Part shown: one piece after another, positions 8,756 to 25,583 of the stretch | Layout of the letters: each line of letters starts with the position of its first letter | How positions within the stretch are numbered: position 1 is the first letter of the stretch | Assembly: GCA_900318245.1 (NCBI GenBank) | Contig: ONJT01000013.1 | Coordinates: forward strand, 34,479-98,478 | Direction of reading: 5' to 3' | Source: an uncultured Bacteroidales bacterium | Lineage (GTDB): Bacteria; Bacteroidota; Bacteroidia; Bacteroidales; Paludibacteraceae | DNA: 64,000 nt | The notes under the pieces: model-generated | What the model was told of the DNA's origin: nothing | What the model saw: the letters and a program-made list of their open reading frames with translations, nothing else | The model's database searches: none | Program-made: the position numbers and the translations under genes

Positions 8756-8757
8756 TT

Positions 8758-10630: not shown

Positions 10631-10651
10631 TGAAAATTGAAAGGTGAAAGA
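10631..10651 (+). repeat. Heptamer array (TGAAANN x3) at porin ribosome site
   Basis: Three 7-base units, TGAAAAT, TGAAAGG and TGAAAGA, end 3 bases before the ATG at 10655. The family matches the GAAAGGT heptamers on the minus strand at 23938-23979. Confidence 0.6.
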
Positions 10652-10654
10652 GAT

Positions 10655-12121
10655 ATGAGAAGACGAACAATCTTATTTATTTCGCTGATATGTTGCGCAT
10701 TAACGAGTTTTGCGGAGGATAGCATCAAGGAGAGTGCGGCCGATCTGCAGGCGCTGATGGAGCGCGTGGAGCGTTTGGAGCAAAAAGCGGAGCATCCCAA
10801 TAAATTGGGATTAGATGCAGTGTCCGGCGCGACGAAGCAAGTGCCGAAAGACACGGTGAAGCATCATCGCCGCGGAACGTTCACCATCGGTGGCTACGGC
10901 GAAGTGACCGCCAAGCATTGCTGGTTCTCCAATAACTACCTGCGGTATGGCAAGAATCCGGAGAAATACGCGAACGACCATTACGGCGAGTTTGATTTGC
11001 CTCACGTGGTGCTGTATCTGGGCTATGATTTCGGCAAAGGATGGAGCGTAGCTACGGAGATTGAGTTTGAGCACGGCGGCACGGAGAGCGCGGTGGAGAT
11101 CGAAGAGGAAGAAGGCGGCGAGTACGAGAGTGAGATCGAGCGCGGCGGCGAAGTGGCGCTGGAGCAGTTCTGGTTGCAGAAAGCTTTCAACCGCTATGCG
11201 ATCCTGCGCGCGGGTATGCAGGTGATACCGGTCGGCGGACTGAATGCCCACCATGAACCGACGGAATATTTCGGCGTCTATCGTAATGCCGGAGATTTTA
11301 CGATCATCCCATCTACATGGCATGAAGTGGCACTCACGTTCATGGGATCCACGCCTAACGGATGGCACTATCAGGCGATGTTTCTGCCCGGACTCGATAG
11401 TGACCGCTTTGGTACGAAAAACTGGGTTAAAACAGGCGCCGGCAGTCCGTATGAGTTTAAGTTGGCGAATGTGTTTGCCGGTGCTGCGCGAGTGGATTAT
11501 ACCGGCGTGAAAGGTTTGCGTCTCTCCCTCTCCGGATACTGCGGCAATTCGTTCCGAAACACCCTCTCCAAATCCAATGCCGAACTGGACGCGAGTGCCT
11601 ATAAGGATGTCAAAGGTACCGTCTCTATCGGGGCATTTGATTTCCAATACAAGGATCATGGCATTATTCTCCGCGGTAGTTTCACATATGGGCATCTTAG
11701 CGATGCAGCGCTTATCTCGCAATACAATAAGACGCAGATGCGCCGCGAAAGTGTTTCCAAGAAACAAGATGTGGCTTCCGACGCACTCGCAGCAGGTATC
11801 GAAGCGGGATATGATTTCTTCTCTCTGAACCGCAAGCTCGTGGAGAAAAAGCAGCAGTTCTACGTTTTCGCACGCTATGATTACTACGACTCCATGTTCA
11901 AATATGACGGTCAACTCACCGATAAAGCTGCATGGTGCGGGAGACACCGCGCAGCCGTGGGAATAAACTATTTCCCTATCAAACAGATAGGGGTGAAAGC
12001 GGAGTTCTCATACGGCATCCTCAAAAAAGGAACGCGCACGGATGGCACGCGGGGAAAACTCTATAATGACGAACCCCAGATTGCCGTTGGTATCGTTTAT
12101 GCAGGATTTTATCAACTCTAA
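10655..12121 (+). CDS. Outer-membrane porin of iron/haem cluster
   Basis: A 488-residue protein with signal peptide (MRRRTILFISLICCALTSFA), a short coiled coil (ALMERVERLEQKAEH, near residues 35-50) that could trimerise it, then alternating hydrophobic beta strands ending in an aromatic residue pattern (GIVYAGFYQL). This is the layout of a phosphate-selective-porin-like (OprO/P) barrel. A TTG at 10637 would extend it but breaks the signal peptide. It leads the set porin, imelysin, di-haem oxidoreductase and CcsA, so metal or haem uptake across the outer membrane is the likely role. Substrate is not evident. Confidence 0.8.
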   Translation: MRRRTILFISLICCALTSFAEDSIKESAADLQALMERVERLEQKAEHPNKLGLDAVSGATKQVPKDTVKHHRRGTFTIGGYGEVTAKHCWFSNNYLRYGKNPEKYANDHYGEFDLPHVVLYLGYDFGKGWSVATEIEFEHGGTESAVEIEEEEGGEYESEIERGGEVALEQFWLQKAFNRYAILRAGMQVIPVGGLNAHHEPTEYFGVYRNAGDFTIIPSTWHEVALTFMGSTPNGWHYQAMFLPGLDSDRFGTKNWVKTGAGSPYEFKLANVFAGAARVDYTGVKGLRLSLSGYCGNSFRNTLSKSNAELDASAYKDVKGTVSIGAFDFQYKDHGIILRGSFTYGHLSDAALISQYNKTQMRRESVSKKQDVASDALAAGIEAGYDFFSLNRKLVEKKQQFYVFARYDYYDSMFKYDGQLTDKAAWCGRHRAAVGINYFPIKQIGVKAEFSYGILKKGTRTDGTRGKLYNDEPQIAVGIVYAGFYQL

Positions 12122-12146
12122 TAACAACATTTAAAAATTAATCATT

Positions 12147-13328
12147 ATGAAAAAGATTTTCAAATTCGCACTATGTGCTGCATGCTTCACAGCTATGGTA
12201 GCATGCAACAACAACGGAGGAAGTTCCGAAGTTGTCTCAGACAAAGAGGCTGCGCTTAAACGCGCTATGACGCCTTATGTAGAAAACACGGTTATTGCTA
12301 CCTATCGTTCAATGGCGGACGAAGGACTGGTCCTCTTGGAAAAAGTAAAAGAGATCAATACAGCCGTTAACGATGGAAAAGATTACACCCAAACGATGAA
12401 GGAAGCCGGTGAAGCTTGGCGTGCTATGCGTAAGTATTGGGAGCAAAGCGAAGCGTTCCTTTACGGACCTGCCGCTGCGCATAATATCGACCCCCATATC
12501 GATACATGGCCTCTCGATTTCACAGCAATGAGTAACCTTCTCAAAAACCTCGACCAAATGAAAGATATAGAAGCAGACGGCGTAGCTTATGTCAAGAATA
12601 ATCTCGGTCCGTCCCTGCAGGGTTTCCATGCTGCGGAATATATGCTCTTTGAATCGGTAGAGCAGGGCGGACGCGCTGTCGGAACAGGCAATCCGCACGC
12701 CACCAATCTCTCCAAAGCAGAATCTGCTTATCTGCTCGGTGTAGTGACGGATCTTGTACAGCAGGCAATCCTCATCGAGGATAGTTGGGCAGGCGAAGTT
12801 TCTGCAGCGAAAGAAGCCATCATCACCGAGGATGACGAGTCGATGAGTTACGGCGAGAACTACGGCGAGTATATGGTGAATGCCGGACAAGCCGGTTCGC
12901 TCTATAAATCCTATCAGCATGCAACCGAGGAAATCATCGATGGATGCGTAAATATCGCCGATGAGGTAGCCGGTCTGAAGATGGGTAACCCCTATCTGAG
13001 CAGTACGGATAAGGAAAGAGACTATATCGAGTCTCCGTATAGTTGCACCTCCACACGCGATTTCGCGGATAATATCCGTTCTATCAAGAATTCCTACGAA
13101 GGTTCACAGGCAGGCGATTTCTCCATCTCTAATTATATCTACAGCCAGGACCCGAAGGTGGATGCAGAGGTTCGCAAAGCTATCGAAGAGGCTATTGCAG
13201 CTATCGAAGCTATCCAGAATTTTGAGAGCACGGCGCAGAACAACCCGCAGGTAAAAGCCGCTATGGAGGCAGTAGAAAAAGTGGGTGAACTGCTCGCAAA
13301 AGATGTTAAGGCAATTATCGTAAAATAA
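12147..13328 (+). CDS. Imelysin family lipoprotein
   Basis: A 393-residue lipoprotein (MKKIFKFALCAACFTAMVAC, lipidated Cys20). The imelysin GxHxxE motif is present as GFHAAE at residues 159-164, and the upstream segment with WEQSEAFLYGP and DTWPLD is typical of the family. Imelysin-fold proteins (IrpA, ICMP, EfeO relatives) are iron-regulated and thought to bind iron. It starts 25 bases after the porin and is followed after 7 bases by the di-haem oxidoreductase, a common arrangement. It is probably periplasmic, tethered to a membrane. Confidence 0.9.
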   Translation: MKKIFKFALCAACFTAMVACNNNGGSSEVVSDKEAALKRAMTPYVENTVIATYRSMADEGLVLLEKVKEINTAVNDGKDYTQTMKEAGEAWRAMRKYWEQSEAFLYGPAAAHNIDPHIDTWPLDFTAMSNLLKNLDQMKDIEADGVAYVKNNLGPSLQGFHAAEYMLFESVEQGGRAVGTGNPHATNLSKAESAYLLGVVTDLVQQAILIEDSWAGEVSAAKEAIITEDDESMSYGENYGEYMVNAGQAGSLYKSYQHATEEIIDGCVNIADEVAGLKMGNPYLSSTDKERDYIESPYSCTSTRDFADNIRSIKNSYEGSQAGDFSISNYIYSQDPKVDAEVRKAIEEAIAAIEAIQNFESTAQNNPQVKAAMEAVEKVGELLAKDVKAIIVK

Positions 13329-13335
13329 TAGAATC

Positions 13336-15051
13336 ATGAAAAAATCATTTTTATTCCTAACGGCACTCGCCGCTGTGGCTTTAGTAGGCTGCAAAGCCGA
13401 AGGCTCAGGCGATGGTCCCCAAATAGACGACAAACCGGATTGGTTTTATACCGGAGGTAAAACAGGTACCACTACTATCACCTCCTCTATGGCATTCCGT
13501 CAACCTACGCCCGCTACCGAAGCGGTTGGATCCGGCCTGAAATTTACGCAGGGTGACCAGGTAGCCGAGACAGAGTATGTCACCAATCCTACCGGACGCC
13601 AGCATGGCCTGGGTCCCGTCTATGTACGCGCATCCTGCCAGCATTGTCATCCTAATTATTCCCATGGTACTTCGGTGCCTGCGGGTAAATACGATGCGAA
13701 GAACGTAGGTAACGGTACTCTCCTTGTGCTCTACGATCCGTCAAAACCGTCAGAACCTTACGTATCTTGGGTAGCAGGAATGCCACAACTTTTCGGCGTT
13801 GCACCATTCAAAGCTCCTATCGATCCCTCGCAGATCACTGTGGAATGGAAAACGGTGACCGATGAGCACGGCAATCAATTTGCAGATGGCGAAAAATACG
13901 AGCTTCGCTATCCGGATGTGACTATTCCTACTTCCGCACTCTACTCGGCACAAGCTCAGTTCCGCTCTGCTTTGGAAGCACTTCCGTCAAACGGAGCTAA
14001 CTACGATATCACCAAAGATATTGCGCTGCTTGACGGCGGTTACGAAGTGCGTCTTGAGAACACGATCGGAGTCTATGGCTCCGGTCTCCTCGATGCCATT
14101 CCCGATCAGGATATCATCGATCAGTATGCGAAAGAGGCCAACGACAAGACCGCAGACGGTCAGCCGATGCTGAAGAATGGTCTGAACCCAGCTTTCTGGA
14201 ACGGCGGATTCCAAAATACCGGCTACTATAAGAACGACCCGCAGTGGGGTCCGAAACGCTTCACGTACGCTCTTACGCGCGGTCCTATCATGGATGCTGC
14301 GGGTGCGAATGCTATCTGGAACATCACGAACGTGACCCGTTCTGACCGTCAGTACCATTACCTCGACCTCGATGGCCGTGTCTATGCTACCTGCGCTTCG
14401 ATTGACCCGGAGGTACAAGCCGCTTTCCCGGATTTCGTCAAGACGATCGATCCGAATGGAGAACACCCCGAATGGGCTACTGGCAATGTGGAGAAAGATA
14501 TCTATACATATCTTACGTCTAAAACTCTCCCACAGGAGATGACCGATGATGAGTTCACCCAAGTCATGGTTTGGCACCGCGGTCTGGCTGTTCCTGCAGC
14601 GCGCGATGTCACCGATAAGAAAGTCCTCCGCGGTAAAGAACTCTTTACCCAGATAGGTTGCGACTATTGCCATCGTCCTTCGTGGAAAACAGGACAGGAT
14701 GAGATCCGTGACCCGAATAATTTCAAGGGCTTCACGGCGCAAATGCCGCGTTATCAGAATCAGACTATTTGGCCGTACACCGATATGGTACAACATAAAC
14801 TCTGCATGGAGAATGACATCCGTACAGGTTGGTGTCGTACTACCCCGCTTTGGGGCCGCGGACTCCACCGTCAGGCTACAGGCGATCGCTATGAGGCTCG
14901 TCTTCACGATACCCGCGCCCGCAATGTCATAGAGGCTATTATGTGGCATGGATATAATCCGAATTCGGATGCGTACTATCCGACACAGAAGTTCTATAAA
15001 CTGAATAAAGAAGACAGAGATGCAGTCGTGGCTTTCATCAATGCGATCTAA
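13336..15051 (+). CDS. Di-haem oxidoreductase (thiol oxidoreductase) lipoprotein
   Basis: A 571-residue lipoprotein (signal ending LVGC) with two c-type haem motifs: CQHCH at residues 101-105 and CDYCH at 442-446. The spacing and the phrases near the second haem (GKELFTQIGCDYCHRPSW, then a C-terminal ALxF-like VVAFINAI) fit the di-haem oxidoreductase family, formerly called putative thiol oxidoreductase, related to MauG/CcpA peroxidases. It would act in the periplasm, probably changing the redox state of iron for the neighbouring imelysin. Covalent haem attachment needs cytochrome c maturation, supplied by the next gene, which overlaps its end by 11 bases. Confidence 0.9.
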   Translation: MKKSFLFLTALAAVALVGCKAEGSGDGPQIDDKPDWFYTGGKTGTTTITSSMAFRQPTPATEAVGSGLKFTQGDQVAETEYVTNPTGRQHGLGPVYVRASCQHCHPNYSHGTSVPAGKYDAKNVGNGTLLVLYDPSKPSEPYVSWVAGMPQLFGVAPFKAPIDPSQITVEWKTVTDEHGNQFADGEKYELRYPDVTIPTSALYSAQAQFRSALEALPSNGANYDITKDIALLDGGYEVRLENTIGVYGSGLLDAIPDQDIIDQYAKEANDKTADGQPMLKNGLNPAFWNGGFQNTGYYKNDPQWGPKRFTYALTRGPIMDAAGANAIWNITNVTRSDRQYHYLDLDGRVYATCASIDPEVQAAFPDFVKTIDPNGEHPEWATGNVEKDIYTYLTSKTLPQEMTDDEFTQVMVWHRGLAVPAARDVTDKKVLRGKELFTQIGCDYCHRPSWKTGQDEIRDPNNFKGFTAQMPRYQNQTIWPYTDMVQHKLCMENDIRTGWCRTTPLWGRGLHRQATGDRYEARLHDTRARNVIEAIMWHGYNPNSDAYYPTQKFYKLNKEDRDAVVAFINAI

Positions 15052-16054
15052 ACCCGCGACTTGGTTGCTGCACATCGCCCTGGGGATCATTGTCCTCGGG
15101 GCGTGTGTGACGCATTTCTTCGGCGAACAGGGCGAGATACACCTGCGGGCCGATCAGGCGCAGCGTGTGCCGCATTCGGATATCAGCCTTTTCCTTTGGG
15201 ATTTTCATATCGTGAGCGACAAGGACGGCAATCCGGTGGATTTCATCTCCGAGTTGCGGCTGTTGGATAGGGATGCCAAGAACAACGGACAAGGACTCCA
15301 GGTGGACGAAGGCATCGTGCGGATGAACAAGCCGCTTAAATACCACGGTTTTCGTTTCTGTCAATCGGACTACGACAGCGACATGCAAGGTGTTGTGCTG
15401 GCGTATAACCACGCCCCCTGGGGTATCGGTATTACGTATGCCGGGTATGCCTTATTGTTGATAGCGATGGTGGTATTTTTCGGCCAAAGAAACTCGTATT
15501 TCCGTGCGGTGGTCGGCAAACAGCATAAGTGGTGGATGATCGGTTTGGGGATAGTTGCGGTAGTACTCGCCATTGTTATGACGCGTGTGGTTACTCCCAA
15601 ACCGCCTTTGCAACCTGTGCTGCAGACCCCATTACTCGGAATCCATGTGTCCGTCATCATGTTGGCCTACACGCTATTTGCGGTCATTATGATTCTTGGT
15701 GTTCTGGGACTGTGCATGCCGAAACGTCGCGAACAACTCATGCAGTTCTCGCAAGTGCTGCTTTATCCGGCCTTGTTCTGCCTGACCGCCGGCATCTTCA
15801 TTGGTGCGGTATGGGCGAACATGTCCTGGGGACGGTACTGGGGATGGGACCCTAAGGAGACTTGGGCGCTCATCACGATGATGGTCTATGCGGTTTTGCT
15901 TCATATGCCTTGGCTGAAAACGAAATGCAAGATCTTTAACGGCAGCTATCCCATTGTTTATCACGTCTTTAGCGTGATTGCATTTGCCTTCGTATTGTTC
16001 ACTTATTTTGGGGTGTCCTACCTGCTTGGCGGACTCCATTCGTATGCAAATTAA
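15041..16054 (+). CDS. ccsA: ResB-CcsA type cytochrome c assembly protein
   Basis: A 337-residue membrane protein. The N-terminal ~125 residues have one membrane helix and a periplasmic ResB-like beta region (KPLKYHGFRFCQSDYD). The rest is a CcsA domain with several helices and the WWD haem-handling signature WGRYWGWDPKETWALI near residues 262-277. It receives haem and ligates it to CxxCH apocytochromes (system II). An alternative ATG lies at 15020; the ATG at 15041 is preferred because it precedes RSKPATWLL directly. The 11-base overlap with the di-haem gene implies translational coupling: enzyme and haem-attachment factor are made together. Confidence 0.9.
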   Translation: MRSKPATWLLHIALGIIVLGACVTHFFGEQGEIHLRADQAQRVPHSDISLFLWDFHIVSDKDGNPVDFISELRLLDRDAKNNGQGLQVDEGIVRMNKPLKYHGFRFCQSDYDSDMQGVVLAYNHAPWGIGITYAGYALLLIAMVVFFGQRNSYFRAVVGKQHKWWMIGLGIVAVVLAIVMTRVVTPKPPLQPVLQTPLLGIHVSVIMLAYTLFAVIMILGVLGLCMPKRREQLMQFSQVLLYPALFCLTAGIFIGAVWANMSWGRYWGWDPKETWALITMMVYAVLLHMPWLKTKCKIFNGSYPIVYHVFSVIAFAFVLFTYFGVSYLLGGLHSYAN

Positions 16055-16073
16055 CAGAATAAATTCATTCCTA

Positions 16074-16105
16074 TTTGCTTATGTCAAAGAAAATTTGTAA
16101 TTTTG
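16074..16105 (+). promoter_or_regulatory. Promoter of hemerythrin-LuxR gene
   Basis: TTTG at 16074-16077, 20 bases, TAATTTTG at 16098-16105. It lies inside the longest open frame of the next gene, which rules out the start codons at 16075 and 16081 and supports 16129. Confidence 0.85.
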
Positions 16106-16128
16106 CACCCGAATTCGATGCAACGAGT

Positions 16129-17016
16129 ATGTATAAAGCAACCGATAAGATATGCGATCTGATGGCGCACGAGGAAGATGCGATTCAGATCATCAGCCGT
16201 TTCGGACTTGAGATGGGAGTAGGGGAACAGACCATTGAGCAGGTGTGCGAGGCGCATAACGTCCATACGCCCACTTTCCTCGCTATCGTCAATTACAAGG
16301 TCTTCCACCTGCGTGCCATTCCCGAAGATATCGACCTGCCGACGCTGCAGCGATACCTGAGAAATGCCCATACGTATTTCCTTGATTTTCGCTTGCCACG
16401 CTTGCGCCGTGCGCTTGTTGAAGCCATCATCCCTGCCGATCCGACAACAAAGATCCCGGGGCTGATCCTGCGCTGCTACGATGAGTTCGTGGACGAGATA
16501 CGCACGCATATCGAGCATGAGAACGAAGGCCGCTATGACGAGCACGAGCATGACGACCAGCGCATCACCGATAAGCTGACCGAGATAAAGAACCTCATCA
16601 TCAAGTACTACCCGTCGCCCAAAGAACAATCATCAATCAGCACTCATCAATCACCAATCACCTATCTCCTGATAAGTGTCATGTCCGACCTATGGCATAC
16701 GGAGCAGGATTTTGCGGACCATTGTGCCATCGAAGATGATATTCTCCGGCCGGCCTTGAGCCAAGAGCACGTGCATGGGCATCGTCGGCACTTGCTACCG
16801 CAGACGGAAGAGCTGAGCGAACGCGAGAAAGATGTGCTGATACAGGTGGTGAAAGGACTGAGCAACAAAGAGATAGCCGACGTGCTATGTATCTCCATGC
16901 ACACCGTCATCTCGCATCGTAAGAACATCGCGCGGAAGTTGAACATCCACTCCACGGCGGGTCTGACGATCTATGCGATCGTGAATAAACTGGTGGATCT
17001 GAATACGCTGGAATAA
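16129..17016 (+). CDS. Hemerythrin-domain LuxR-type transcription regulator
   Basis: A 295-residue fusion. Residues ~1-50 resemble the ScdA/RIC (YtfE) N-terminal domain (AHEEDAIQIISRFGLEMG). Next comes a four-helix hemerythrin-like region with metal-ligand-type residues (EFVDEIRTHIEHENEG, later HCAIEDDILRP). A GerE/LuxR helix-turn-helix ends the protein (LSEREKDVLIQVVKGLSNKE). Di-iron hemerythrin domains sense oxygen, NO or iron, so this is probably a redox or iron-responsive DNA-binding regulator; the neighbouring iron/haem operon is a plausible target. It resembles the layout I recall for Porphyromonas haemin regulators (CdhR type), unverified. An array of AATCATC-like heptamers (16628-16662) inserts about 12 residues between hemerythrin helices. 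Confidence 0.85.
   Translation: MYKATDKICDLMAHEEDAIQIISRFGLEMGVGEQTIEQVCEAHNVHTPTFLAIVNYKVFHLRAIPEDIDLPTLQRYLRNAHTYFLDFRLPRLRRALVEAIIPADPTTKIPGLILRCYDEFVDEIRTHIEHENEGRYDEHEHDDQRITDKLTEIKNLIIKYYPSPKEQSSISTHQSPITYLLISVMSDLWHTEQDFADHCAIEDDILRPALSQEHVHGHRRHLLPQTEELSEREKDVLIQVVKGLSNKEIADVLCISMHTVISHRKNIARKLNIHSTAGLTIYAIVNKLVDLNTLE
16628..16662 (+). repeat. Heptamer array inside hemerythrin regulator
   Basis: Five 7-base units (AATCATC, AATCAGC, ACTCATC, AATCACC, AATCACC), perhaps six with TATCTCC. The same heptamer forms the array at 22336-22377. It is translated in frame as a Ser/Thr/Gln-rich loop. Confidence 0.75.
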
Positions 17017-17018
17017 GG

Positions 17019-17489
17019 CTACATGTTCGCGTTGTAATACTGCGGTTGGCCGGTGACCTCTTCGCCAATCCAGTCAGGACAGGAGATGGGTTCGTGCTCA
17101 TCTCCTAATTCTATCTCCGCGAGGATGAGTCCCGCCTTCTTGCCGGAATGGAACACATCCACTTCCCATTTGCGCTCCTGACCCTCGTAGGGCGGGGCAG
17201 GGATGATATAGCGCGTCTTGGAGATAGCGCCGGGCAGACAGAGACGGAGCAGCTCTTTGGCATCCGCCGGATCCAACTCGCGCTCCCACTCGAACTTAGC
17301 GAGGCCCTCGCGCAGCACGGAGGACTTGATAGTAAGGAACGCGCGTGCGTCGCGTATACGCACACGAATGGTCTTCTCCGGGTCCTTGCACAAATAACCC
17401 TGCACGATCTCATAACTGGTGACGGCCTGCGTCTTAAACGCGTCCGAACGCACCAAAAACTTACGCTCTATTTCCGTATTCTTTGCCAT
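17019..17489 (-). CDS. CYTH domain protein
   Basis: A 156-residue protein beginning AKNTEIERKFLV, the EXEXK motif (EIERK) that defines the CYTH/triphosphate tunnel metalloenzyme fold. Other typical features are the RVRIRD strand, FLTIKS, FEWERELD and IELGDEHEPI. Such enzymes act on triphosphate or polyphosphate compounds in the cytoplasm; short bacterial members often hydrolyse inorganic triphosphate. The frame extends upstream to 17540, but the promoter lies there and the family motif begins right after the ATG at 17489. It reads towards the hemerythrin regulator, with only 2 bases between the stop codons. Confidence 0.85.
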   Translation of the reverse strand: MAKNTEIERKFLVRSDAFKTQAVTSYEIVQGYLCKDPEKTIRVRIRDARAFLTIKSSVLREGLAKFEWERELDPADAKELLRLCLPGAISKTRYIIPAPPYEGQERKWEVDVFHSGKKAGLILAEIELGDEHEPISCPDWIGEEVTGQPQYYNANM

Positions 17490-17497
17490 AGTCGCTG

Positions 17498-17529
17498 CAA
17501 AATTACTACTTTTTTGCGACATACACAAA
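17498..17529 (-). promoter_or_regulatory. Promoter of CYTH gene
   Basis: On the minus strand TTTG (17526-17529), 20 bases, TAATTTTG (17498-17505). It lies only 8 bases before the ATG, so the leader is extremely short or absent. Its spacer (TATGTCGCAAAAAAGTAG) nearly equals that of the GH53 promoter at 49708-49739. Confidence 0.8.
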
Positions 17530-17545
17530 AAAAAGTACAAAAATA

Positions 17546-17577
17546 TTTGGTCAATTCAAAAATTTGTAGTACCTTTG
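17546..17577 (+). promoter_or_regulatory. Promoter of tRNA-Ser
   Basis: TTTG at 17546-17549, 20 bases, TACCTTTG at 17570-17577, then CACCCGCTTTTGAAAAG. The same downstream string, with one change, follows the tRNA-Val promoter. Confidence 0.85.
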
Positions 17578-17617
17578 CACCCGCTTTTGAAAAGAAGCAC
17601 ATTTCAGTTATTATCCA

Positions 17618-17704
<87 letters not shown>

Positions 17705-17713
17705 CAGAAAAGA

Positions 17714-17957: not shown

Positions 17958-17963
17958 ACGGTG

Positions 17964-18058: not shown

Positions 18059-18619
18059 TTAGTCGCAAAGTGTAAACAAATCCTCCCTTGGATTGACCAA
18101 CATGACAGGAACAAGGGCTTGACGGATGGCGTGTAACTCCTGCGGACCGAATAAAATGTCATCGAGCCCGTAATCACGGCTCGCGGTGAGGATGAGCAGG
18201 TCATGGCGGAAGTCACGCTGCCGCTCCGCCGCCTCGCGCATCAGCTTGAAGGAGTCTTTCTTCGCCATCGCCACCTCATAACTGATGGGTTCGCCCGTCT
18301 TCTCCGCGACAGCCTTAATATGCGTGACGATGCGGTTGACGTTCTGCCGCGCGTGCGAACCGTAGTCGTTGGCCTGCAGCAGGATGATATGTGCGCCGGT
18401 CTTACGCGCCAGGTAGGTACATATCTCCGCCTTATAGGTCTCTTCCTCGAGCATCGAGACGGGCACTAACAGACGGCGCAGCGGCTTGACGGTCATCGTA
18501 GAGGTGACAAACACATACGGCCGCCGCTCCTCGCGGCATTCGTTGAGGTAGTGCTGGATCGCGCGGCGCTTGTTCTCGCACTCTACCAACTTAATATCGT
18601 CGTTATTATCCCAAATCAT
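18059..18619 (-). CDS. Universal-stress-protein-like protein
   Basis: A 186-residue soluble protein. Residues ~50-186 show the UspA pattern: a first strand LRRLLVPVSML, a helix with amphipathic charge (ETYKAEICTYLARKTGAH), strand IILLQAND, and a last strand LVPVMLVNP. The usual ATP-binding G-x2-G-x9-G(S/T) motif is not evident, so it may not bind ATP. The ATG overlaps the mltG stop codon by 4 bases (ATGA), so the two are translationally coupled. The longer frame upstream lies inside mltG and is not used. It ends the mutS-mltG operon. Confidence 0.7.
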   Translation of the reverse strand: MIWDNNDDIKLVECENKRRAIQHYLNECREERRPYVFVTSTMTVKPLRRLLVPVSMLEEETYKAEICTYLARKTGAHIILLQANDYGSHARQNVNRIVTHIKAVAEKTGEPISYEVAMAKKDSFKLMREAAERQRDFRHDLLILTASRDYGLDDILFGPQELHAIRQALVPVMLVNPREDLFTLCD

Positions 18620-19707
18620 TCCAGCGGAAGGGGTTCTTGCGGTTCTTGCGGGGCGTTGAGGCGGTCCCAGTTGATGGTATCCATCGTATGACGGTACTGT
18701 CGAGCCGCTGCCGCATGCGCGCTGTAGGAGGACGAGAAGATATGCGTGTTGTTCAGTTCCGGACTGGCGCACATATACAGATAGTCGGTCTTCGGCGCGT
18801 TGAGCACCATGTCGAGCGTCTCGGGCGACGGACAACGGATCGGGCCGGGCGGCAGACCCGGGTTCTTATACGTGTTATACGGCGAATCGACCGCCAGGTG
18901 GCGATACAGCACGCGCTTGAGTTTGAAATCGCCTACGGCGTACTTCACCGTCGGACAAGCCTGAAGCAGCATACCTTTGTGCACACGGTTGATATAGAGG
19001 CTGGCGATGAGCGGCATCTCGCGTTTGTTATGACTCTCGCCCTCCACGATGGACGCTACGATAGCTACCTCGATAGGCGTCAGACCGATAGAGTCGGCTT
19101 TCGCGCGGCGCGCGTCGTTCCAGAAGACGTTATACTCGCGCTCCATGCGCTTGAAGAGTTGCTCCATCGTGATGTTCCAATACACCTCGTAGGTATTGGG
19201 GATAAAGAGGCACCGGCTGGTCTCTTTGTTCAGCCCGTAGGGCGCGAGGAACGCATCGTCCTCGAGGGCCGCTAACAATTCGACGCTGTCCATCATCAGG
19301 TGGCTCGTCACCTTGCCTGCCAGGTCCTCGCGGGTGCGGACGAAGTTATTCCACGTGATATGCACCGGCGTCTGGTAACCGTATTTGAGCCGCTCGATGA
19401 GTTCGCGGTTGCCCAGTTGCGCGTTGAAGGTGTAGTAACCCGGTTCGGGGTAGTTGAACACCAGCGCGCGGGCATGCAGCGCAAAGTCGCGCCGGCTACC
19501 GATCTCGTAGTCCTGCTCGATGAGGTTGAGCACCGAGTCGATGGTCGCACCCGGATAGATCTTATAGCTGTGCTCCAGTCCGTCGAACGAGCGGAAGTTG
19601 CTCACATGCAGACGGTAGTACTGCTCCGTGACAAAAGCGATGCCAAGGAAGACGATGAGGCACGAGACCGTCAGGGCTGTGCGCCAGATATAACGTTTCT
19701 TTATCAT
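18616..19707 (-). CDS. mltG: Endolytic murein transglycosylase MltG
   Basis: A 363-residue YceG-family protein with one N-terminal membrane helix (residues ~9-28) and a periplasmic domain. Family features are a LysM-like subdomain with GATIDSVLNLI, the catalytic-region phrase VEGESHNKREMPLIASLYINR (catalytic Glu) and the PYNTYKNPGLPPGPIRCPS signature, which is nearly invariant. It cleaves nascent peptidoglycan strands and sets glycan length. It follows mutS at once (stop at 19709, start at 19707), and the next gene overlaps its stop by 4 bases, so all three probably form one operon. Confidence 0.95.
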   Translation of the reverse strand: MIKKRYIWRTALTVSCLIVFLGIAFVTEQYYRLHVSNFRSFDGLEHSYKIYPGATIDSVLNLIEQDYEIGSRRDFALHARALVFNYPEPGYYTFNAQLGNRELIERLKYGYQTPVHITWNNFVRTREDLAGKVTSHLMMDSVELLAALEDDAFLAPYGLNKETSRCLFIPNTYEVYWNITMEQLFKRMEREYNVFWNDARRAKADSIGLTPIEVAIVASIVEGESHNKREMPLIASLYINRVHKGMLLQACPTVKYAVGDFKLKRVLYRHLAVDSPYNTYKNPGLPPGPIRCPSPETLDMVLNAPKTDYLYMCASPELNNTHIFSSSYSAHAAAARQYRHTMDTINWDRLNAPQEPQEPLPLE

Positions 19708-19708
19708 A

Positions 19709-22324
19709 TTATTTTCCTCCTACTAAGCGTTTTATTTCCGATAGTTTATTGAGCGCCTCGAGCGGCGTCAGGTTATTGATATCCAGCGACTTGACCTCAT
19801 CGCGTATCTGCTCCAACACGGGGTCGTCGAGTTGGAAGAACGATAACTGCATGCCCTCGCGCGTCTCGCCGATATGGTCGGTGGGCTTCGCCAGGTCGCC
19901 GTTCTTCGCCGCCCGCTCGAGGTCTGCGAGGATTTGGTTGGCGCGCTCAACGATGGACGCCGGCATACCCGCTAACTTCGCTACGTGGATACCGAAACTG
20001 TGCTCCGAACCGCCGCGCACCAGTTTGCGCAGGAAGATGATCTTGCCGTTCACCTCCCGCACGGAGACGTTGTAGTTACGGATGCGCTCGAAGGTCTTCT
20101 CCATCTCGTTCAGCTCATGATAATGGGTGGCGAAGAGCGTCTTGGCGTGTCCGCGGTGCTCATGGATATACTCGACAATCGCCCAGGCGATGGATATACC
20201 GTCGTAGGTGCTGGTGCCGCGGCCGAGTTCGTCAAACAGCACGAGGCTGCGCTCGGAGAGGTTATTCAAGATCGACGCCGCTTCGTTCATCTCGACCATG
20301 AAGGTGGACTCACCCATCGAGATATTATCGCTTGCGCCGACGCGCGTGAAGATCTTATCGACGATACCGATAGACGCGCTCTCGGCGGGCACGAACGAAC
20401 CCATCTGCGCGAGCAGCACGATGAGCGCCGTCTGGCGGAGTAGGGCGGACTTACCGGCCATATTCGGACCGGTGATGATGATGATCTGTTGGCTGTTGTT
20501 ATCCAGCAGCACATCATTTGCGATATACTGTTCGCCCGCCGGCAGCTGTTGCTCTATCACGGGGTGACGACCCTGACGGATGTCGATGACGAGGCTGTCG
20601 TTGACGTCCGGACATACATAGCGGTGCTCGGCGGCGACGGTCGCGAAACTCAACAGACAATCCAACTGCGCCAGCACGTTTGCGTCCAGTTGCATCTGCG
20701 GCACCCATTCGCTCAGCGCGAGCATCAACTCCTGATAGAGCCGGTTCTCAATGATCTGGATACGCTCCTCGGCGGAGTTGATCTTCTCTTCGTAGGTCTT
20801 GAGTTCGTCGGTGATATAGCGCTCGGCGTTGACCAGCGTCTGCTTGCGGATCCACTCCGCCGGCACTTGCTCTTTATACGTGTTGCGTACCTCGAGGTAA
20901 TAGCCGAAGACGTTGTTATACCCTATCTTAAGGCTGCTGATACCCGTTCGTTCACTCTCGCGCTGCTGGATTTGCAGCAGGTAGTCTTTTCCGTCGGACT
21001 GGATAGCGCGCAGTTCGTCCAGCTCCACGTCTACGCCGCGGGCAATGATGTTCGGTCGGCCTTGTGCCAAAGGCGGGTCGGGATTGATCTCCCGCTCGAT
21101 ACGCATGCGCATCTCGGAGCACGCATCGAGTTCTTCGCCCAGCAGCGACAGGTAGGCGTTGTCCCGCGCCTCTTCACATACGCGCTTGATAGGCACGATA
21201 GCCCGTAAAGCGCGCGCCAGTTGCACCATCTCGCGCGGACCGATACGACCCGTGGATATCTTGCTTACGATACGCTCCAGGTCTCCGACCTGCTCGAGTG
21301 ACTCGCGGATTGTCTCGCGCGCCTCGGGTTGGCGGAACAGGTGCTCAACCACCGTTTGTCTATTGCGAATCGGCCGTACTTCTTTGAGCGGGAAAGCCAT
21401 CCATCGGTGCAGCATACGTCCGCCCATCGGGGTGATGGTGCGGTCAATGATGTCGAACAGCGTGCAGCTGTCCTCGCGCTGCCCGCCCGTGAGTTCGAGG
21501 TTGCGCACCGTGAAGCGGTCGAGCCAGACATATTTGTCTTCTTCGATACGGCTCAGGTGCTGGATATGCCCCGTCTGCAGGTGCTGCGTCATATCGAGAT
21601 ACATGAGGATACCTCCCGCCGCTGTCACGCCCGCCGGCATCTTGTCCAGACCGAAACCTTTGAGCGAACTGACGCCCCATAGTTTCTGCAAGCGCTCCTT
21701 GGCGGTGGACTCGACGAGCATCCAGTCTTCGAGTTCGAAGGTGAAGTATTTGGAGCCGAACAGGTTCTCTACGTCGGCCTTGCGTCCGCGCAGGTGCAGC
21801 ACCTCTTTCGGCCCGAAGTTGGTGAGCAGTTTGTCGATATAGTCGCTGTCGCCCTGGCCGGCGAGGAACTCACCGGTGGAGATATCGAGGAAGGCGACGC
21901 CGATGACGTGCTTGTCGAAATGCAGGCACGCTACCCAGTTGTTCTCCTTCTGCGTGAGCGTCGTGTCCGAATAGCTGACGCCCGGCGTGACGAGTTCGGT
22001 CACCCCGCGCTTGACGAGTTTCTTCGTCAGTTTAGGATCCTCGAGTTGGTCGCATATCGCTACGCGCAGACCCGCCCGCACCAGTTTGGGCAGGTAGGTG
22101 TCGAGGGCATGGAAAGGAAAGCCCGCCATCTCCAAAGCCTGCATAGCACTACTGCCGCCGTTCGAACGATGTGTCAGCGTGATATTCAGGATCTTCGACG
22201 CCTTCACCGCATCCTCCGCATAAGTCTCGTAGAAGTCGCCGCAACGGAAGAGCAACATCGCATCCGGATATTGCGTTTTGATGTCGCGGAACTGCTTCAT
22301 CATCGGTGTTTCCTCAGTTTTCAT
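19709..22324 (-). CDS. mutS: DNA mismatch repair protein MutS
   Basis: An 871-residue MutS. The mismatch-binding N-terminus is present ([14 protein letters not shown], where the family has a Phe-x-Glu wedge), followed by core and clamp domains. The ATPase has Walker A GPNMAGKS near residues 617-624, and further on [12 protein letters not shown] and FATHYHEL. It recognises mispaired bases and recruits MutL. The frame is open to 22351, but the ATG at 22324 gives the usual MutS N-terminus; the extra sequence is part of a heptamer array (22336-22377) separating it from the TonB receptor gene. Confidence 0.97.
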
Positions 22325-22335
22325 TATATCTTTTA

Positions 22336-22377
22336 AATCATCAATTATCAATCATCAATCATCAATCATCAATCACC
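22336..22377. repeat. Heptamer array between TonB receptor and mutS
   Basis: Six 7-base units (AATCATC, AATTATC, AATCATC three times, AATCACC). The last unit contains the stop codon of the TonB receptor (22373-22375). The array fills almost the whole spacer up to mutS. Confidence 0.85.
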
Positions 22378-24862
22378 TCAGGTCCACTGTGACTTTGAGG
22401 TTAAACCGTCTGCCGGTCAGGTAGTTCGGGCTCGCCCATTGCTTGCCGAACGCGTCCGCCACCCAGAAATAAGAGTTGACGTTTCGCCATCCTACGAGGT
22501 TGAACACCTCGAACTGGATCGCCCACTGCTTGACGTGCTTCGCGCTCGGCGCCCGCATGAACTTCGCCGTCTGGGCATTGAAGACATAGGTCGCGCCGAG
22601 GTCGATACGCTTGTACATCGGCATACGTCCCCAACTGAGGTTGTTGCGCGGCGCGTAGAAAGGCTGGCCTTCGGCAAACTGCATCTTGAGGTGGAACTTA
22701 AGTTGCGGCAGTTGCGGGATATAGTCCTGGAAGAGCATGGAGAAGTTCCACCGCTGCTCCGTAGGACTCGGTATCCACGGTCCGCCGGTGATGAAATGCT
22801 GGCGCGCCATCATCGTAGAGAACGATATCCAGGAATCCGCGCCGGGCACCAACTCGCCGTACAACTTGAGGTCCAAACCCGTCGCGTAGCCTTGCGAGTC
22901 GTTCTTGCCCGAGTAGCGCACGCGCACATTATCCACCGTATAACTCTCCATCCGGTCGATATGCTTGTAATATCCCTCCATCGTGAATTTGAACGGTCGT
23001 CCCCACGCGCGGAAATAATAGTCGCCGCCGAGCACAACATGCACGGAGCGCTGCGCCTTGAGGTCTTTGTTGAGGTGAATACGCGTCACCCCGAGCTCGT
23101 CGGTGATGGTGTCGCGCAGCTCCTTATAGAACGGCGCCTGGTAGTACAGACCCGTCGCGAGGCGGAAACAGAAGTCGCGCTTCCAACCCGGTATCCATTC
23201 CACGGACGCGCGGGGCGAGGGCAGCACTTCATTGTTCCAACTCCACCACTGGAGTCGTCCGCCGACGGTCAGTATCCACTGGCCCGAAGTTGTGTTCCAT
23301 TTATGCTCGTTCTGGAGGTAGGCTTGTACGCGCGCGGTCGTCATGTCGGAGTGGCCGCGGAGGGTGTAGAAGAGTTCCATCGAATGGCCGTCGTCCGGCA
23401 TGGAGTAGCCTGCACTATCGCGCCATTCCCACTCGCTGATATAGTCGCGTATCAGTTCCGCCTGACCGCTCACGCCCCAACTGAGGGTGTTCTGTCCGCG
23501 CTTCCATGCGCCGTGATGCGCCAGCGTGATGACTCCCGACTCGAGGACATTCCGCGCATGCAGGTGGTAGATACCTGTACCGAGCATGTCCGTCTGACCG
23601 GAAGGATCGAGCGCATCGTCGCGCGAATAGGACGACGCAGACCCGTTGGACGGACCATTGGACAGCACGTACTCGCCGGTGATGTCAAAATTCTCACGCT
23701 CGTTGGAGTAATAACCGCTGAGGTCAAAACCAATTTTTAATTTTGAATTTTTAATTTTGAATTCTCCATTCGCGCTCAGCGCCGCAAAAGCCGTGAGGAA
23801 GCGGTCTTTCTCCTGGCCCTCGTAATAGATATTAAGCGTCTTGGCGTTCTGTCCGCCGAAGGACTCACTCAGACTGTCCGGCGTGAAGCGGTAGTCGTTC
23901 TGGCTGACGTTCCCGAGGAAGGCCATCTCCCAAGGAACCCTTTCCCCCTTCACCTTTCCCCTTTCACCTTTCACCTTCCATGTGATATAGGTCTGATAGT
24001 CGATGAAGGTCGGGTCGTAGTTACCGGTGGTGGCCAGTCCGCCGAGCATGTATTTGCTGGTCTTGTAGCGCAGGCCGTGCATCATCGAGTAAGTACTGTC
24101 GCCGTGCCCCACATAGAGCTGTGCGCCCAAGAGACTCGCGCTGAGACTGGCCTCGAAGGCCGTCGGACGCTTGTAGGTGATGTCCAAGACCGATGCCATC
24201 TTATCGCCGTATTTGGCACTGAATCCGCCCGCCGAGAAATGGACGTTCTCCACCATCTCTGGATTGACAAAACTCAGTCCTTCCTGTTGCCCGGAGCGAA
24301 TGAGCATAGGGCGGTGCACCTCGATGCCGTTGACGTAGACGGAGTTCTCGTCGAACGACCCGCCGCGGACGTTGTATTGGCTACTGAGTTCGTTGGTCTG
24401 ACTGACGCCGGCGAAGGTGATGAGCAGCGACTCGATGGATCCGCCCGTAGCATCCGGCATGACGCGCGTCGTCGTCGCGTCGATATAATCCATCGTGCCT
24501 TGCGTATGCTTGATACCGCGCACCTCGATCTCCGTCAGCACCTGTTCGTCCGTCAGTAGTTGCACGTTGATATTAATCACGTCGCGCACATCGAAGATAC
24601 GCTGCTGCACCGTCGTATAACCAATCATCGAGTAGGCGAGCACCACCGTGTCCGCTTCGTCGAGCAGCAGTTCGTAATAGCCGTTTTTGTTGGTAGCCGT
24701 GCCGATCGGTCGGTCGGTGTTCAGCACCGCTACGTTCGCCAACTCGATACCCACATTGTCCTGATCCACCACATACCCATACACGCGTGCCGTGCGCGCG
24801 TAAGAAAAAAGGCTGCAGAAACAAAGCACCAAAAAGTTTACTATTTTTAAGATTTTGCGCAT
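22373..24862 (-). CDS. TonB-dependent receptor with carboxypeptidase-regulatory domain
   Basis: An 829-residue outer-membrane protein. It has a signal peptide, a CarboxypepD_reg-like domain (residues ~25-110: VYGYVVDQDNVGIELANVAV), a plug domain (SLLITFAGVSQTNELSSQYN, VRGGSFDENSVYVNGIE) and a 22-strand-type barrel ending in an aromatic-charged strand (FNLKVTVDLR). It imports a large substrate using TonB energy; no SusD partner is adjacent, so glycan uptake is not implied. Two heptamer arrays (23732-23766 and 23938-23979) insert short Lys/Glu/Gly-rich stretches into barrel loops in frame. The gene lies upstream of mutS on the same strand. Confidence 0.9.
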   Translation of the reverse strand: MRKILKIVNFLVLCFCSLFSYARTARVYGYVVDQDNVGIELANVAVLNTDRPIGTATNKNGYYELLLDEADTVVLAYSMIGYTTVQQRIFDVRDVININVQLLTDEQVLTEIEVRGIKHTQGTMDYIDATTTRVMPDATGGSIESLLITFAGVSQTNELSSQYNVRGGSFDENSVYVNGIEVHRPMLIRSGQQEGLSFVNPEMVENVHFSAGGFSAKYGDKMASVLDITYKRPTAFEASLSASLLGAQLYVGHGDSTYSMMHGLRYKTSKYMLGGLATTGNYDPTFIDYQTYITWKVKGERGKVKGERVPWEMAFLGNVSQNDYRFTPDSLSESFGGQNAKTLNIYYEGQEKDRFLTAFAALSANGEFKIKNSKLKIGFDLSGYYSNERENFDITGEYVLSNGPSNGSASSYSRDDALDPSGQTDMLGTGIYHLHARNVLESGVITLAHHGAWKRGQNTLSWGVSGQAELIRDYISEWEWRDSAGYSMPDDGHSMELFYTLRGHSDMTTARVQAYLQNEHKWNTTSGQWILTVGGRLQWWSWNNEVLPSPRASVEWIPGWKRDFCFRLATGLYYQAPFYKELRDTITDELGVTRIHLNKDLKAQRSVHVVLGGDYYFRAWGRPFKFTMEGYYKHIDRMESYTVDNVRVRYSGKNDSQGYATGLDLKLYGELVPGADSWISFSTMMARQHFITGGPWIPSPTEQRWNFSMLFQDYIPQLPQLKFHLKMQFAEGQPFYAPRNNLSWGRMPMYKRIDLGATYVFNAQTAKFMRAPSAKHVKQWAIQFEVFNLVGWRNVNSYFWVADAFGKQWASPNYLTGRRFNLKVTVDLR
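23732..23766 (-). repeat. In-frame heptamer array in TonB receptor, A/T type
   Basis: Five 7-base units on the plus strand (AATTTTT, AATTTTG, AATTTTT, AATTTTG, AATTCTC). It is translated as a Lys/Ile/Asn-rich stretch (EFKIKNSKLKI), probably in a surface or turn loop of the barrel. Confidence 0.8.
23938..23979 (-). repeat. In-frame heptamer array in TonB receptor, C/T type
   Basis: Six 7-base units (CCCTTTC, CCCCTTC, ACCTTTC, CCCTTTC, ACCTTTC, ACCTTCC). Length 42 is a multiple of three. It encodes KVKGERGKVKGERV, with the peptide KVKGERG seen twice. Confidence 0.85.
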
Positions 24863-24882
24863 TGTATGCTGATCGGGGTTTT

Positions 24883-24926
24883 ATGCTGGTCTTGTGCTGG
24901 TCTTATGCTATGCAAAAGCTATGCAA
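24883..24926. repeat. 11-bp array between engB and TonB receptor
   Basis: Four 11-base units (ATGCTGGTCTT, GTGCTGGTCTT, ATGCTATGCAA, AAGCTATGCAA), preceded by a partial ATGCTGATCGG. The ATGCTGGT core is also the unit of the array at 41736-41790. Confidence 0.75.
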
Positions 24927-24941
24927 AAAAGTACACGATTA

Positions 24942-25583
24942 TTAAGATTTTATGCTTTCGTTCAACTCTTCGATATAATTGGTGAGCTCCTCGCCGCCGA
25001 AACCGGTCTCGGACGAGGTGACGAAGACGGGCGGCAGTTCTTCCCATTCTTCCAACAGGCGGTTCTTATACGCCTCTACGTTCTCTTTGAGCCGCACTTT
25101 GCCTAACTTGTCGCCTTTGGTGAAGACGATGGCGAACGGAACGCCGTTCTCGCCGAGCCAAGCCATGAACTCAAGGTCTATTTTCTGCGGCTCATGCCGG
25201 CAGTCCACTAACACGAACAGGCACACCATTTCCTCGCGCAGCAGACAGTAGCGCTCGATCATCTTGCGTAGCGCCTCGCGTTGCTTCAGTCCCGTCTGCG
25301 CAAAGCCGTAGCCAGGCAGATCAACGAGATACCACTTATTACTTTCTACTTTTGAACTACTCTCAACTCTCAACTCTCCACTCTCAACTAAAAAGTGATT
25401 AATGAGCAAGGTCTTTCCGGGTTTCTGACTGGTCTTCGCCAACTTCGGATTATGGCACAGCATATTGATCAGGCTGGACTTGCCCACATTACTGCGCCCG
25501 ATAAAGGCGTATTCGGGTTTGCCCGTCTTCGGACAATCCTTGACATCCGGACTGGAGATGATATAAGTAGCTGTTCGTATCAT
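24942..25583 (-). CDS. engB: Ribosome biogenesis GTPase YsxC/EngB
   Basis: A 213-residue TRAFAC GTPase. G1 is [11 protein letters not shown]3 DLPGYGFA, G4 TKGD and G5 TSSETGFG. EngB assists late 50S subunit assembly and is usually essential. Between the strand [10 protein letters not shown] and the strand WYLVDLPG the protein carries about 17 extra residues ([17 protein letters not shown]), encoded almost entirely by a heptamer array (25341-25389). Most family members have only a short turn there. The start ATG at 25583 follows the consensus promoter; a longer frame to 25673 runs through the promoter and is rejected. Confidence 0.95.
25341..25389 (-). repeat. In-frame heptamer array inside engB
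   Basis: Seven 7-base units (ACTTTCT, ACTTTTG, AACTACT, CTCAACT twice, CTCCACT, CTCAACT) on the plus strand. On the coding strand they give Glu/Ser/Val-rich residues in a beta-hairpin turn of the GTPase. Confidence 0.85.

What the first reader, a model, noticed from the sequence alone, without database searches (positions are those of the whole stretch)
10631..25389. Strict 7-bp periodic arrays, several placed in frame inside genes
Six arrays with an exact period of 7 occur: 10631-10651, 16628-16662, 22336-22377, 23732-23766, 23938-23979 and 25341-25389. Unit families differ (AATCATC, AATTTTG, ACCTTTC, CTCAACT), but each array stays in register and two families recur at distant loci. Three lie in spacers or overlap gene ends; four are translated, in loops of EngB, a TonB receptor and the hemerythrin regulator. 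Seven is not a multiple of three, so insertion in essential genes must be length-selected. I cannot name a described element of this kind. It may be a replication or repair product (for example primer-like slippage) or an active element.
Basis: partly seen in the sequence, partly recalled or inferred. Interest (0 to 1): 0.72.

Follow-up and report, generated by a model that had tools for sequence, protein, structure and literature searches.

The report
Heptamer repeats linked to IVP elements
Short seven-letter repeat blocks in this gut bacterium come and go between close relatives, and their nearest counterparts elsewhere often frame a small gene of unknown function that was first seen as a selfish insert in ribosomal RNA, which may explain an unexplained class of bacterial repeats.

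Summary
The arrays are real: lag-7 repeats occur six times in the window and never in 20 Markov shuffles, though they are imperfect, not strict. The genome (Paludibacteraceae, ruminant gut) carries about 70 per Mb. Relatives have empty sites, or other units, at the same places in EngB, a TonB receptor and the TonB-stop/MutS-start junction. At about 94% identity 12 of 21 comparable sites differ by presence or absence, by eye. Outside genes, arrays tend to begin at a stop codon. Unit families are genome-specific and dispersed. Heptamer tandem repeats as such are a known kind. New here, as far as ten literature searches show: heptamer arrays flank many PF05635 four-helix-bundle (23S-rRNA-IVP, Avd-like) genes, often as inverted, locus-private arms, in Bacteroidota and Cyanobacteriota, with single cases in three more phyla. 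A complete 441-bp element sits just after a stop codon in a relative and is absent there from the window's genome. I read the window's arrays as gene-less "solo" arms of this IVS-type element, reshaped by slippage and filtered by selection. The link is associative: the own genome shows no PF05635 gene above cut-off, and no mobilising enzyme is known.

The parts
10631..10651 (.). [quoted passage not shown]
   Evidence: below the lag-7 threshold
16627..16670 (+). in-frame array, units AATCATC/AATCACC, in a hemerythrin/LuxR-type regulator gene; 21 bp shorter in the 94% relative G061, same length in G062
22336..22375 (-). array TGATTGA (AATCATC on +) that begins at the TonB-receptor stop codon and runs towards the MutS ATG; one 7-bp unit shorter in G061 and G062; other units or nothing in other species
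23732..23763 (-). in-frame array AATTTTT/AATTTTG in the TonB receptor; absent in G061 (25 bp of other sequence instead of 34)
23938..23977 (-). in-frame array GGTGAAA/GGGGAAA in the TonB receptor; other species carry other units, a hairpin-type repeat, or nothing at this site
25359..25389 (-). in-frame array GAGAGTT in EngB/YihA; unit variant GGAGAGT where TGA would fall in frame; different inserts or empty in relatives
22373..24862 (-). TonB-dependent receptor with two in-frame arrays and one array at its stop codon
24942..25583 (-). EngB (YihA/YsxC) GTPase with in-frame array
   Evidence: TIGR03598, 190.5 bits
16075..17016 (+). hemerythrin-like/LuxR-type regulator with in-frame array
19709..22324 (-). 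MutS; its start codon lies just beyond the array 22336-22375

Best explanation
The arrays are gene-less ('solo') copies of the repeat arms of a small selfish element related to the 23S-rRNA intervening sequences (IVS). A complete element is a PF05635 four-helix-bundle gene of about 360 bp between two blocks of short tandem repeats, often heptamers, that are often reverse complements of one another and private to the element, so that its transcript can fold into a stem with the gene in the loop. Elements and solo arms persist where they do little harm: at stop/start junctions of adjacent genes and, if their length is a multiple of three and no stop falls in frame, in loops of proteins. Unit number then changes by slippage in 7-bp steps (21-bp steps inside genes), units are homogenised, and old arrays decay by point mutation. 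Shown: period-7 excess, empty sites, 7- and 21-bp steps, position at stop codons, genome-specific unit families, heptamer arms around PF05635 genes (many loci in two phyla, single cases in three more), and absence of a complete element at the matching site of the own genome. Inferred: that solo arrays derive from arms, that the stem RNA or its DNA is what is copied, that the four-helix-bundle protein takes part (it is a distant relative of Avd of diversity-generating retroelements), and that template switching keeps the two arms matched.
For: Arms around PF05635 genes: lag-7 arrays (score >=11) within about 200 bp of 21 of 48 Bacteroidales genes on at least one side, 14 on both; 2.24/kb near (43 arrays) against 0.18/kb far (28). 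Replicate in three close relatives of the window genome: 8 of 10 at least one side, 4 both, 3.50/kb against 0.25/kb. Cyanobacterial plasmids: 13 of 16 at least one side, 10 both, 3.75/kb against 0.37/kb. Seven further plasmid loci: lag-7 score >=9 within about 200 bp in 6. Specificity: 34 of 96 flanks of PF05635 genes, 0 of 54 of PF13366 genes, 16 of 214 of other genes. Arms complementary and private: own inverted score median 32, against 16 between loci and 15 for 46 control genes; 23 of 48 above the between-locus 99% point, controls 3 of 46. Stem fold z -5.06 (Nostoc C052) and -2.63 (L072). Same niche: the 441-bp element in G061 follows a TAA stop and is absent from own, G062 and G036; in L072 a PF05635 insert of about 526 bp fills the TonB/MutS junction where other genomes have solo arrays or a few bases. 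Dispersal: GGACAAT arrays in 6 loci each of G002 and G004 and in none of 35 other genomes; GAAAGGT in 11 own loci, 6 in G018, 5 in G015. Print: three tandem heptamers upstream of the S23p ORF in the Coxiella IVS, copy number varying between strains (PMC4990558, section 16 read).
Against: The window holds no PF05635 gene and the own genome none above the cut-off (one hit of 26.9 bits against 33.8; MAG 92% complete), yet it has about 70 arrays per Mb, so an intact gene in cis is not needed. Heptamer arms are not universal: 27 of 48 Bacteroidales PF05635 genes have none at score >=11, and five more loci that I left out of that count had none either, so 21 of 53; by eye many of the rest have other repeats (periods 6, 8, 11, or hairpin units). 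Orientation is mixed in Bacteroidales: of 14 two-sided loci inverted beats direct in 8, direct beats inverted in 6; 9 of 48 have direct similarity above its 99% point. In cyanobacteria only 6 of 16 loci exceed the between-locus 95% point on whole flanks, since units resemble each other across loci. No solo array was traced to a particular complete element. No mobilising enzyme or target-site duplication was established; the own junction at the G061 site holds AATTAAATTAATTT, so it may be a remnant rather than a virgin site.
Confidence: 0.5

Rival explanations
1. Plain simple-sequence repeats: heptamers arise and grow by replication slippage anywhere, selection removes all but those at stop/start junctions, in intergenic DNA or in tolerant loops, and PF05635 genes are independent passengers that settle in the same spots or in the arrays themselves.
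For: 7-bp and 21-bp length steps; concerted unit change at 45847 (by eye); published view that 7 nt may match the polymerase contact length (PMC4679880 introduction and PMC4692102 passages, both on Mrazek et al.). Same-direction arrays on both sides of some PF05635 genes, e.g. L317, L236, fit insertion of the gene into an array.
Against: Arrays at one junction have unrelated units in different species that are not, beyond the stop codon, found in the empty site (by eye); unit families are genome-specific and dispersed; opposite arms around a gene are often complementary to each other and private to the locus, which slippage of one array does not give; near/far contrast at PF05635 genes is about tenfold.
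Confidence: 0.28
2. Functional cassettes: because 7 is not a multiple of 3, a unit with one stop codon puts a stop in all three frames within 21 nt, so arrays after genes act as translation insulators or regulate the next gene.
For: 41 of 49 gene-end arrays carry a stop on the coding strand of the unit; 26 of 63 arrays outside ORFs start within -5..+4 nt of a stop codon (null 4.6%), and many run to the next ATG (by eye). MacGregor 2015 proposes a translational role for TAACTGA repeats.
Against: Part of this is built in: an array with stops in every frame ends any ORF that runs into it. In the subset that starts at or after the stop only 12 arrays remain (9 with a stop on the coding strand). 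Presence is not conserved (20 of 29 genomes lack an array at the TonB/MutS junction) and half of the arrays lie inside ORFs (70 of 133).
Confidence: 0.1
3. Hypervariable loop alleles exchanged by recombination between species; heptamers are just one allele type.
For: At several sites 20-50 bp are replaced wholesale between flanks of 95-99% identity; allele classes scattered over the genus at the TonB loop and at C26:17046; L072 and G062 share 2.9 kb at >=99% though L072 is about 85% identical to the window overall.
Against: Does not explain the period-7 excess, intergenic arrays, or the arms of PF05635 genes.
Confidence: 0.07

Closest known systems
23S rRNA intervening sequences (IVS) with S23p/IVP ORF, e.g. 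Coxiella burnetii (PMC4990558)
   Same: ORF of the same protein family by name (S23p/IVP), complementary ends that form a stem, tandem heptamers beside the ORF with strain-variable copy number; described as selfish
   Different: The loci read here lie between or after protein genes, not in rRNA; arms are tandem arrays with locus-private units; the arrays of the window's genome lack the gene; RNase III excision untested
Long heptanucleotide simple-sequence repeats (Mrazek et al. 2007 as cited in PMC4679880; GGGAATC in Xanthomonas, GGGGA(C/T)T in Nostoc, PMC4692102; STRR of cyanobacteria, recalled)
   Same: Tandem 7-bp units, many intergenic, degenerate, length-variable
   Different: PMC4692102 studies one unit type per genome and in the passages I read names no flanked gene; here many units per genus, in-frame copies in essential genes, and arms of PF05635 genes
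TAACTGA direct repeats (MacGregor 2015, PMC4679880)
   Same: Heptamers near start and stop codons, stop-bearing in one orientation; in Beggiatoaceae, Cyanobacteria and five Bacteroidetes; present in one relative and absent in another
   Different: Single fixed unit; no linked gene identified in the sections I read; a regulatory role proposed
Rickettsia palindromic elements (recalled, no call)
   Same: Small repeats inserted in frame in many genes
   Different: Palindromic with a shared sequence; the window arrays are not palindromic. The hairpin-type repeat of relatives is the closer match
Avd of diversity-generating retroelements
   Same: Distant similarity of the four-helix-bundle protein (L072 protein: NF033474 37.1 bits, below its cut-off of 80; PF22296 41.5 bits, cut-off 40)
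   Different: The L188 and L319 proteins show no Avd match at E <= 0.001; no reverse transcriptase or template/variable repeat was looked for

Membership tests
Heptanucleotide tandem repeat (SSR/STRR class) | tandem 7-bp units above chance | tested here: met
   6 against 0 in 20 shuffles; about 70 per Mb
Heptanucleotide tandem repeat (SSR/STRR class) | length changes in whole units | tested here: met
   -7 at 22347, -21 at 16625; one unit between G061 and G062 at 45847
IVS-type element (window arrays) | PF05635 (S23p/IVP) ORF | tested here: not met
   own genome has only one PF05635 hit, below cut-off and on another contig
IVS-type element (relatives' complete copies) | PF05635 ORF | tested here: met
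IVS-type element (relatives' complete copies) | complementary ends forming a stem | tested here: met
   met for part: 33 of 48 Bacteroidales and 7 of 16 cyanobacterial loci at p<0.05 against between-locus pairs; folds of two elements
IVS-type element (relatives' complete copies) | inserted in a 23S rRNA helix | tested here: not met
   the annotated or aligned loci lie between or after protein genes; rRNA genes were not searched
IVS-type element | excised from RNA by RNase III | not testable with these tools
   needs RNA data
TAACTGA repeats | unit TAACTGA | tested here: not met
   window units differ
Transposable element with target-site duplication | short direct repeat at the ends of the insert | tested here: inconclusive
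   the two flank matches overlap by 4 bp at the own site of the G061 element, but the overlap lies in AT-rich repeat sequence
Diversity-generating retroelement | reverse transcriptase with template and variable repeats | not tested
   only the Avd-like similarity was seen

The most novel reading that the evidence does not exclude
Heptamer repeats of several bacterial phyla, so far unexplained, are the arms and arm-only offspring of one cross-phylum family of minimal selfish elements: an IVP/four-helix-bundle gene in an RNA-foldable stem made of element-private tandem heptamers. It seeds arrays at stop/start junctions and, in frame, in essential proteins, thereby inventing new protein loops. 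The family would propagate by copying a stem RNA or its DNA with help from its Avd-like protein, each lineage amplifying its own unit.
Probability: 0.4. Interest if true: 0.88.

Novelty: new variant of a known kind. Interest (0 to 1): 0.7.

Why it matters
Two unexplained things meet: the heptanucleotide repeats of Bacteroidota, cyanobacteria and others, and the IVP/'four helix bundle' genes, for which PMC4990558 states no known function. If they are one system, the origin of the repeats, their dispersal and the role of the protein become testable together. It would also show a route by which non-coding repeats become in-frame segments of essential proteins such as EngB, with visible traces (a unit variant where a stop would fall in frame).

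Tried and rejected
Unit birth from the local seed: rejected by eye at the TonB/MutS junction, where units differ between species and, beyond the stop codon, are not found in the empty site. A single shared motif: units do align to a common pattern (T[CT]A-type, 5.0 bits against at most 3.44 in 15 position-shuffled controls, orthologues and duplicate loci not removed), but T[CT]A is also the reverse complement of TGA/TAA and may follow from gene-end position, so I do not treat it as a recognition site. Motif AAGYC-NN-TAG beside arrays: 5 rows (4 distinct, one locus counted twice) against 0.55 expected, nearly all one unit family. Pairs of inverted arrays around other genes: 2 inverted, 10 direct, with duplicates, no new cargo. 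Genes ranked by complementary flanks: 5 of 1360 score >=32, among them the PF05635 gene of L072. GxxExxY/PF13366 genes as a second cargo of heptamers: no lag-7 arrays near 28 genes, though they have repeats of their own. A 'replacement' mechanism at 23732 and C26:17046: partly explained by allele classes shared across the genus.

Corrections made on checking: one search used a TonB query in a shifted frame and one genome twice; one search repeats it in frame (30 rows, 29 genomes). Searches counted one genome twice (L073 = part of G062); one search recounts without L073 and also without L072, which shares 2.9 kb with it.

Rows dropped: from the 30 PF05635 loci, five were left out (L225, L235, L243 near contig ends, L237 broken, L242 below cut-off); none of the five had an array at score >=11. 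Of the 15 hits in G061-G063 the ten over cut-off were used. PF13366: 28 of 30 loci, 27. Plasmid hits: 17 of 24 records and 6 of 31 were opened (chosen for coverage and for phyla other than cyanobacteria). Four of the 12 presence/absence sites come from one contig pair (C55/L058) that may be a variable island, and flanks at some sites are only 78-87% identical.
Full report
1. The observation. A lag-7 self-match scan of the 64-kb window gives six arrays (score >=13) against none in 20 order-3 Markov shuffles; among periods 4-24 only 7, 11 and their multiples give any. The arrays are imperfect (TRF), so 'strict' overstates. The window is part of a 2.26-Mb draft genome with 36 same-genus relatives among the 60 searched; named relatives are Paludibacteraceae, several from ruminant gut. 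In 580 kb of the own genome there are 41 arrays with period 7 (score >=15; 71 per Mb) and 14 with period 11. Other Bacteroidales (44 loci, 631 kb) have 20 with period 7 and none with period 11.

2. Empty sites and turnover. EngB in 30 genomes: the loop before DLPGYG is 60 bp in 11 and 69-132 bp in 19. By eye five inserts are heptamers (units GAGTTGA twice, GAGTCAA, ATGGTAA, CAGTATT) and three combine AAAGTCG heptamers with a hairpin repeat; the relative with 87% identical EngB shares the window's insert at the same length with point differences. The TonB receptor in 13 genomes: at four loop sites different genomes carry different heptamers, a hairpin repeat, or nothing. At one of them eight genomes have segments of exactly 34 bp, with different and partly decayed heptamers, and eighteen have 25 bp without (my count, duplicate rows removed). 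Against the relative L071/G061 (93.7%): one 7-bp unit fewer at 22347, 21 bp fewer at 16625, the 23732 array absent, a heptamer array in L071 at 24709 where the window has none, and an array inside an ORF of G061 at window -13580, absent in own. Over 580 kb of own against 567 kb of G061 sequence there are 27 rows, which I read as 21 sites; 12 differ by presence or absence, by eye (four of these from one contig pair).

3. Where arrays sit. In 117 Paludibacteraceae loci (1.91 Mb) there were 138 arrays, 72 inside ORFs (52%, random segments 88%). Recounted without two loci that repeat others: 133 arrays, 70 inside, 63 outside; of the 63, 26 start within -5..+4 nt of an upstream stop codon, where random placement outside ORFs gives 4.6%. 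Caveat: stops in all frames end ORFs inside an array; that predicts offsets spread over about 21 nt, and 21 arrays do lie at -25..-6. The alignment-based case is the TonB-stop/MutS-start junction, 30 rows from 29 genomes. Nine genomes have an array from the stop codon on, with units TGATTGA (own, G061, G062), GGACAAT, AATTGAA, AATTTGA, GATTTAG, AGAATTTAGAATTA and AAAGTTG; twenty have none, fourteen of them only 2-12 nt including the stop codon. Of 49 gene-end arrays 41 carry a stop in the unit on the coding strand; of 70 inside ORFs 53 are stop-free on the coding strand. The other 17 must avoid the stop through unit variants, as the sequence shows in EngB (GGAGAGT for TGAGAGT) and in the TonB receptor (GGGGAAA for GGTGAAA). 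Period-11 arrays (55) are dispersed between genes, 2 inside ORFs, without this anchoring.

4. Unit families disperse within genomes. Exact three-unit patterns in 37 genomes: GGACAAT only in G002 and G004, six loci each; GAAAGGT in five genomes, 11 loci in own, 6 in G018, 5 in G015, 2 in G046 and 1 in G009; GATTGAT-type in four. Backwards-read controls are zero except three hits with the GAAAGGT pattern (two in G012, one in G015). The hairpin repeat AAAGACCGC-n-GCTCAAAG occurs in 9 of 37 genomes, 37 times in G004, 22 in G018, 20 in G001 and in G022, 16 in G002, 11 in G015, and never in own (control: one hit, in G039); its longer stems vary with compensation between copies (by eye).

5. The link to PF05635. 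The junction array of L072 is part of an insert of about 526 bp with a small ORF, a PF05635/TIGR02436 four-helix-bundle protein with distant Avd similarity. PF05635 rings in 26 of 37 genomes (25 over the cut-off) and in none of 14 control genomes. Around 48 such genes: arrays (score >=11) on at least one side in 21, on both in 14; 43 arrays near (2.24/kb), 28 far (0.18/kb); five further loci left out of the count had none. In G061-G063, 8 of 10 genes over the cut-off have an array, 4 on both sides. Upstream flank against reverse complement of downstream flank: median score 32, against 16 between loci and 15 for 46 other genes. Lag-7 arrays lie in 34 of 96 flanks of these genes, 0 of 54 of PF13366 genes and 16 of 214 of other genes. 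In cyanobacterial plasmids (16 loci): 13 of 16 one-sided or better, 10 of 16 two-sided; of 11 two-sided at score >=9, ten are more inverted than direct. Examples: AGTAGGG...TCCCTAC between ribonucleotide-reductase subunits; ACAGGTG...CTGTCACC between cas6 and cas4 (the second array lies within the annotated start of cas4); AGGGAAC...CTGTTCCC. Six of seven further loci (Treponema saccharophilum, Bernardetia, Monoglobus, Chlorohelix twice, Euhalothece; not Gemmatirosa) have lag-7 arrays (score >=9) within about 200 bp, so Spirochaetota, Bacillota and Chloroflexota rest on one organism each. The Nostoc C052 element folds with the arms paired (z -5.06). In the opened cyanobacterial loci 14 of 16 genes lie between co-directional neighbours (my reading).

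6. Complete elements and their empty sites. G061 has a 441-bp element with GAATTAA/AATTTTT arms directly after the TAA of a gene ending ...EQGLV; own matches both flanks (98% and 96%) without it, and G062 and G036 have no repeat there. Own retains AATTAAATTAATTT, so a remnant is possible. G063 and G021 have other sequence at the site, with repeats of about 11 bp (by eye). A second element (G063:C21) has 522 bp where G036 has 77. A third gene tried (L267) found no matching flanks.

7. Literature. Seen: PMC4679880 (outline, sections 3, 9, 10, passages), PMC4990558 (passages, section 16), PMC3936711 (passages: 18 IVP genes in cas loci), PMC4692102 (passages), PMC5524665 (passages). PMC4990558 reports tandem GACAGAT heptamers upstream of the S23p ORF with two or three copies by strain, and complementary IVS ends. 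Ten searches (open-licence library only, listings read) showed no paper that links heptamer arrays in general to IVP genes.

8. Verdict. Heptamer arrays are a known kind; that the window's arrays are variable between relatives, belong to dispersed unit families and are selection-filtered is well supported. That they are solo arms of IVP elements is the best reading of a strong association, not a demonstration, and the missing IVP gene in the own draft genome is the main point against it.

Noticed in passing
window 24877-24909, 41735-41776, 51308-51357: Tandem arrays with period 11 (e.g. TATGCTGGTAA, CGCACTTACCG), nearly all outside ORFs in the genus (2 of 55 inside), not anchored at stop codons, absent from 631 kb of other Bacteroidales.
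   Followed up: partly
relatives, e.g. G004:C46:12278-12303, L220, L224: Dispersed hairpin repeat AAAGACCGC-n-GCTCAAAG with stem cores that vary by compensation, genome-specific, in frame in EngB and the TonB receptor of relatives, and of the same type as arms of some PF05635 genes.
   Followed up: partly
window 16072-16117: A stretch of about 38-46 bp near the start of the hemerythrin regulator gene matches dozens of places in three relatives' genomes; possibly a promoter-type repeat.
   Followed up: no
L282-L311 (PF13366/GxxExxY genes): Many GxxExxY genes have complementary or direct flanking repeats of another kind (CACGGATT-like), no heptamers; perhaps a parallel element class.
   Followed up: partly
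L175 (G000:C32), 2584-15473: Five AAAGTCG arrays in and beside a 3492-aa ORF on one 15.7-kb contig.
   Followed up: no
window about 30.9 kb (G061:C26:17046): A 40-bp coding segment with two allele classes across the genus; in G061 it is a near-perfect heptamer array coding LSTFNFQLSTI, in others a similar peptide with decayed periodicity (by eye).
   Followed up: partly
window 10289-10448: 61-bp tandem repeat, 2.6 copies, at the end of a small ORF.
   Followed up: no
L057:18572 (own) against L206 (G061): At one site own has a heptamer array and G061 an octamer (GAATGATG) array between flanks of 96-98% identity.
   Followed up: no
L072 and L073/G062: Two genomes share 2857 bp at >=99% identity although they are otherwise about 85-88% from the window; a recent exchange between species.
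   Followed up: no
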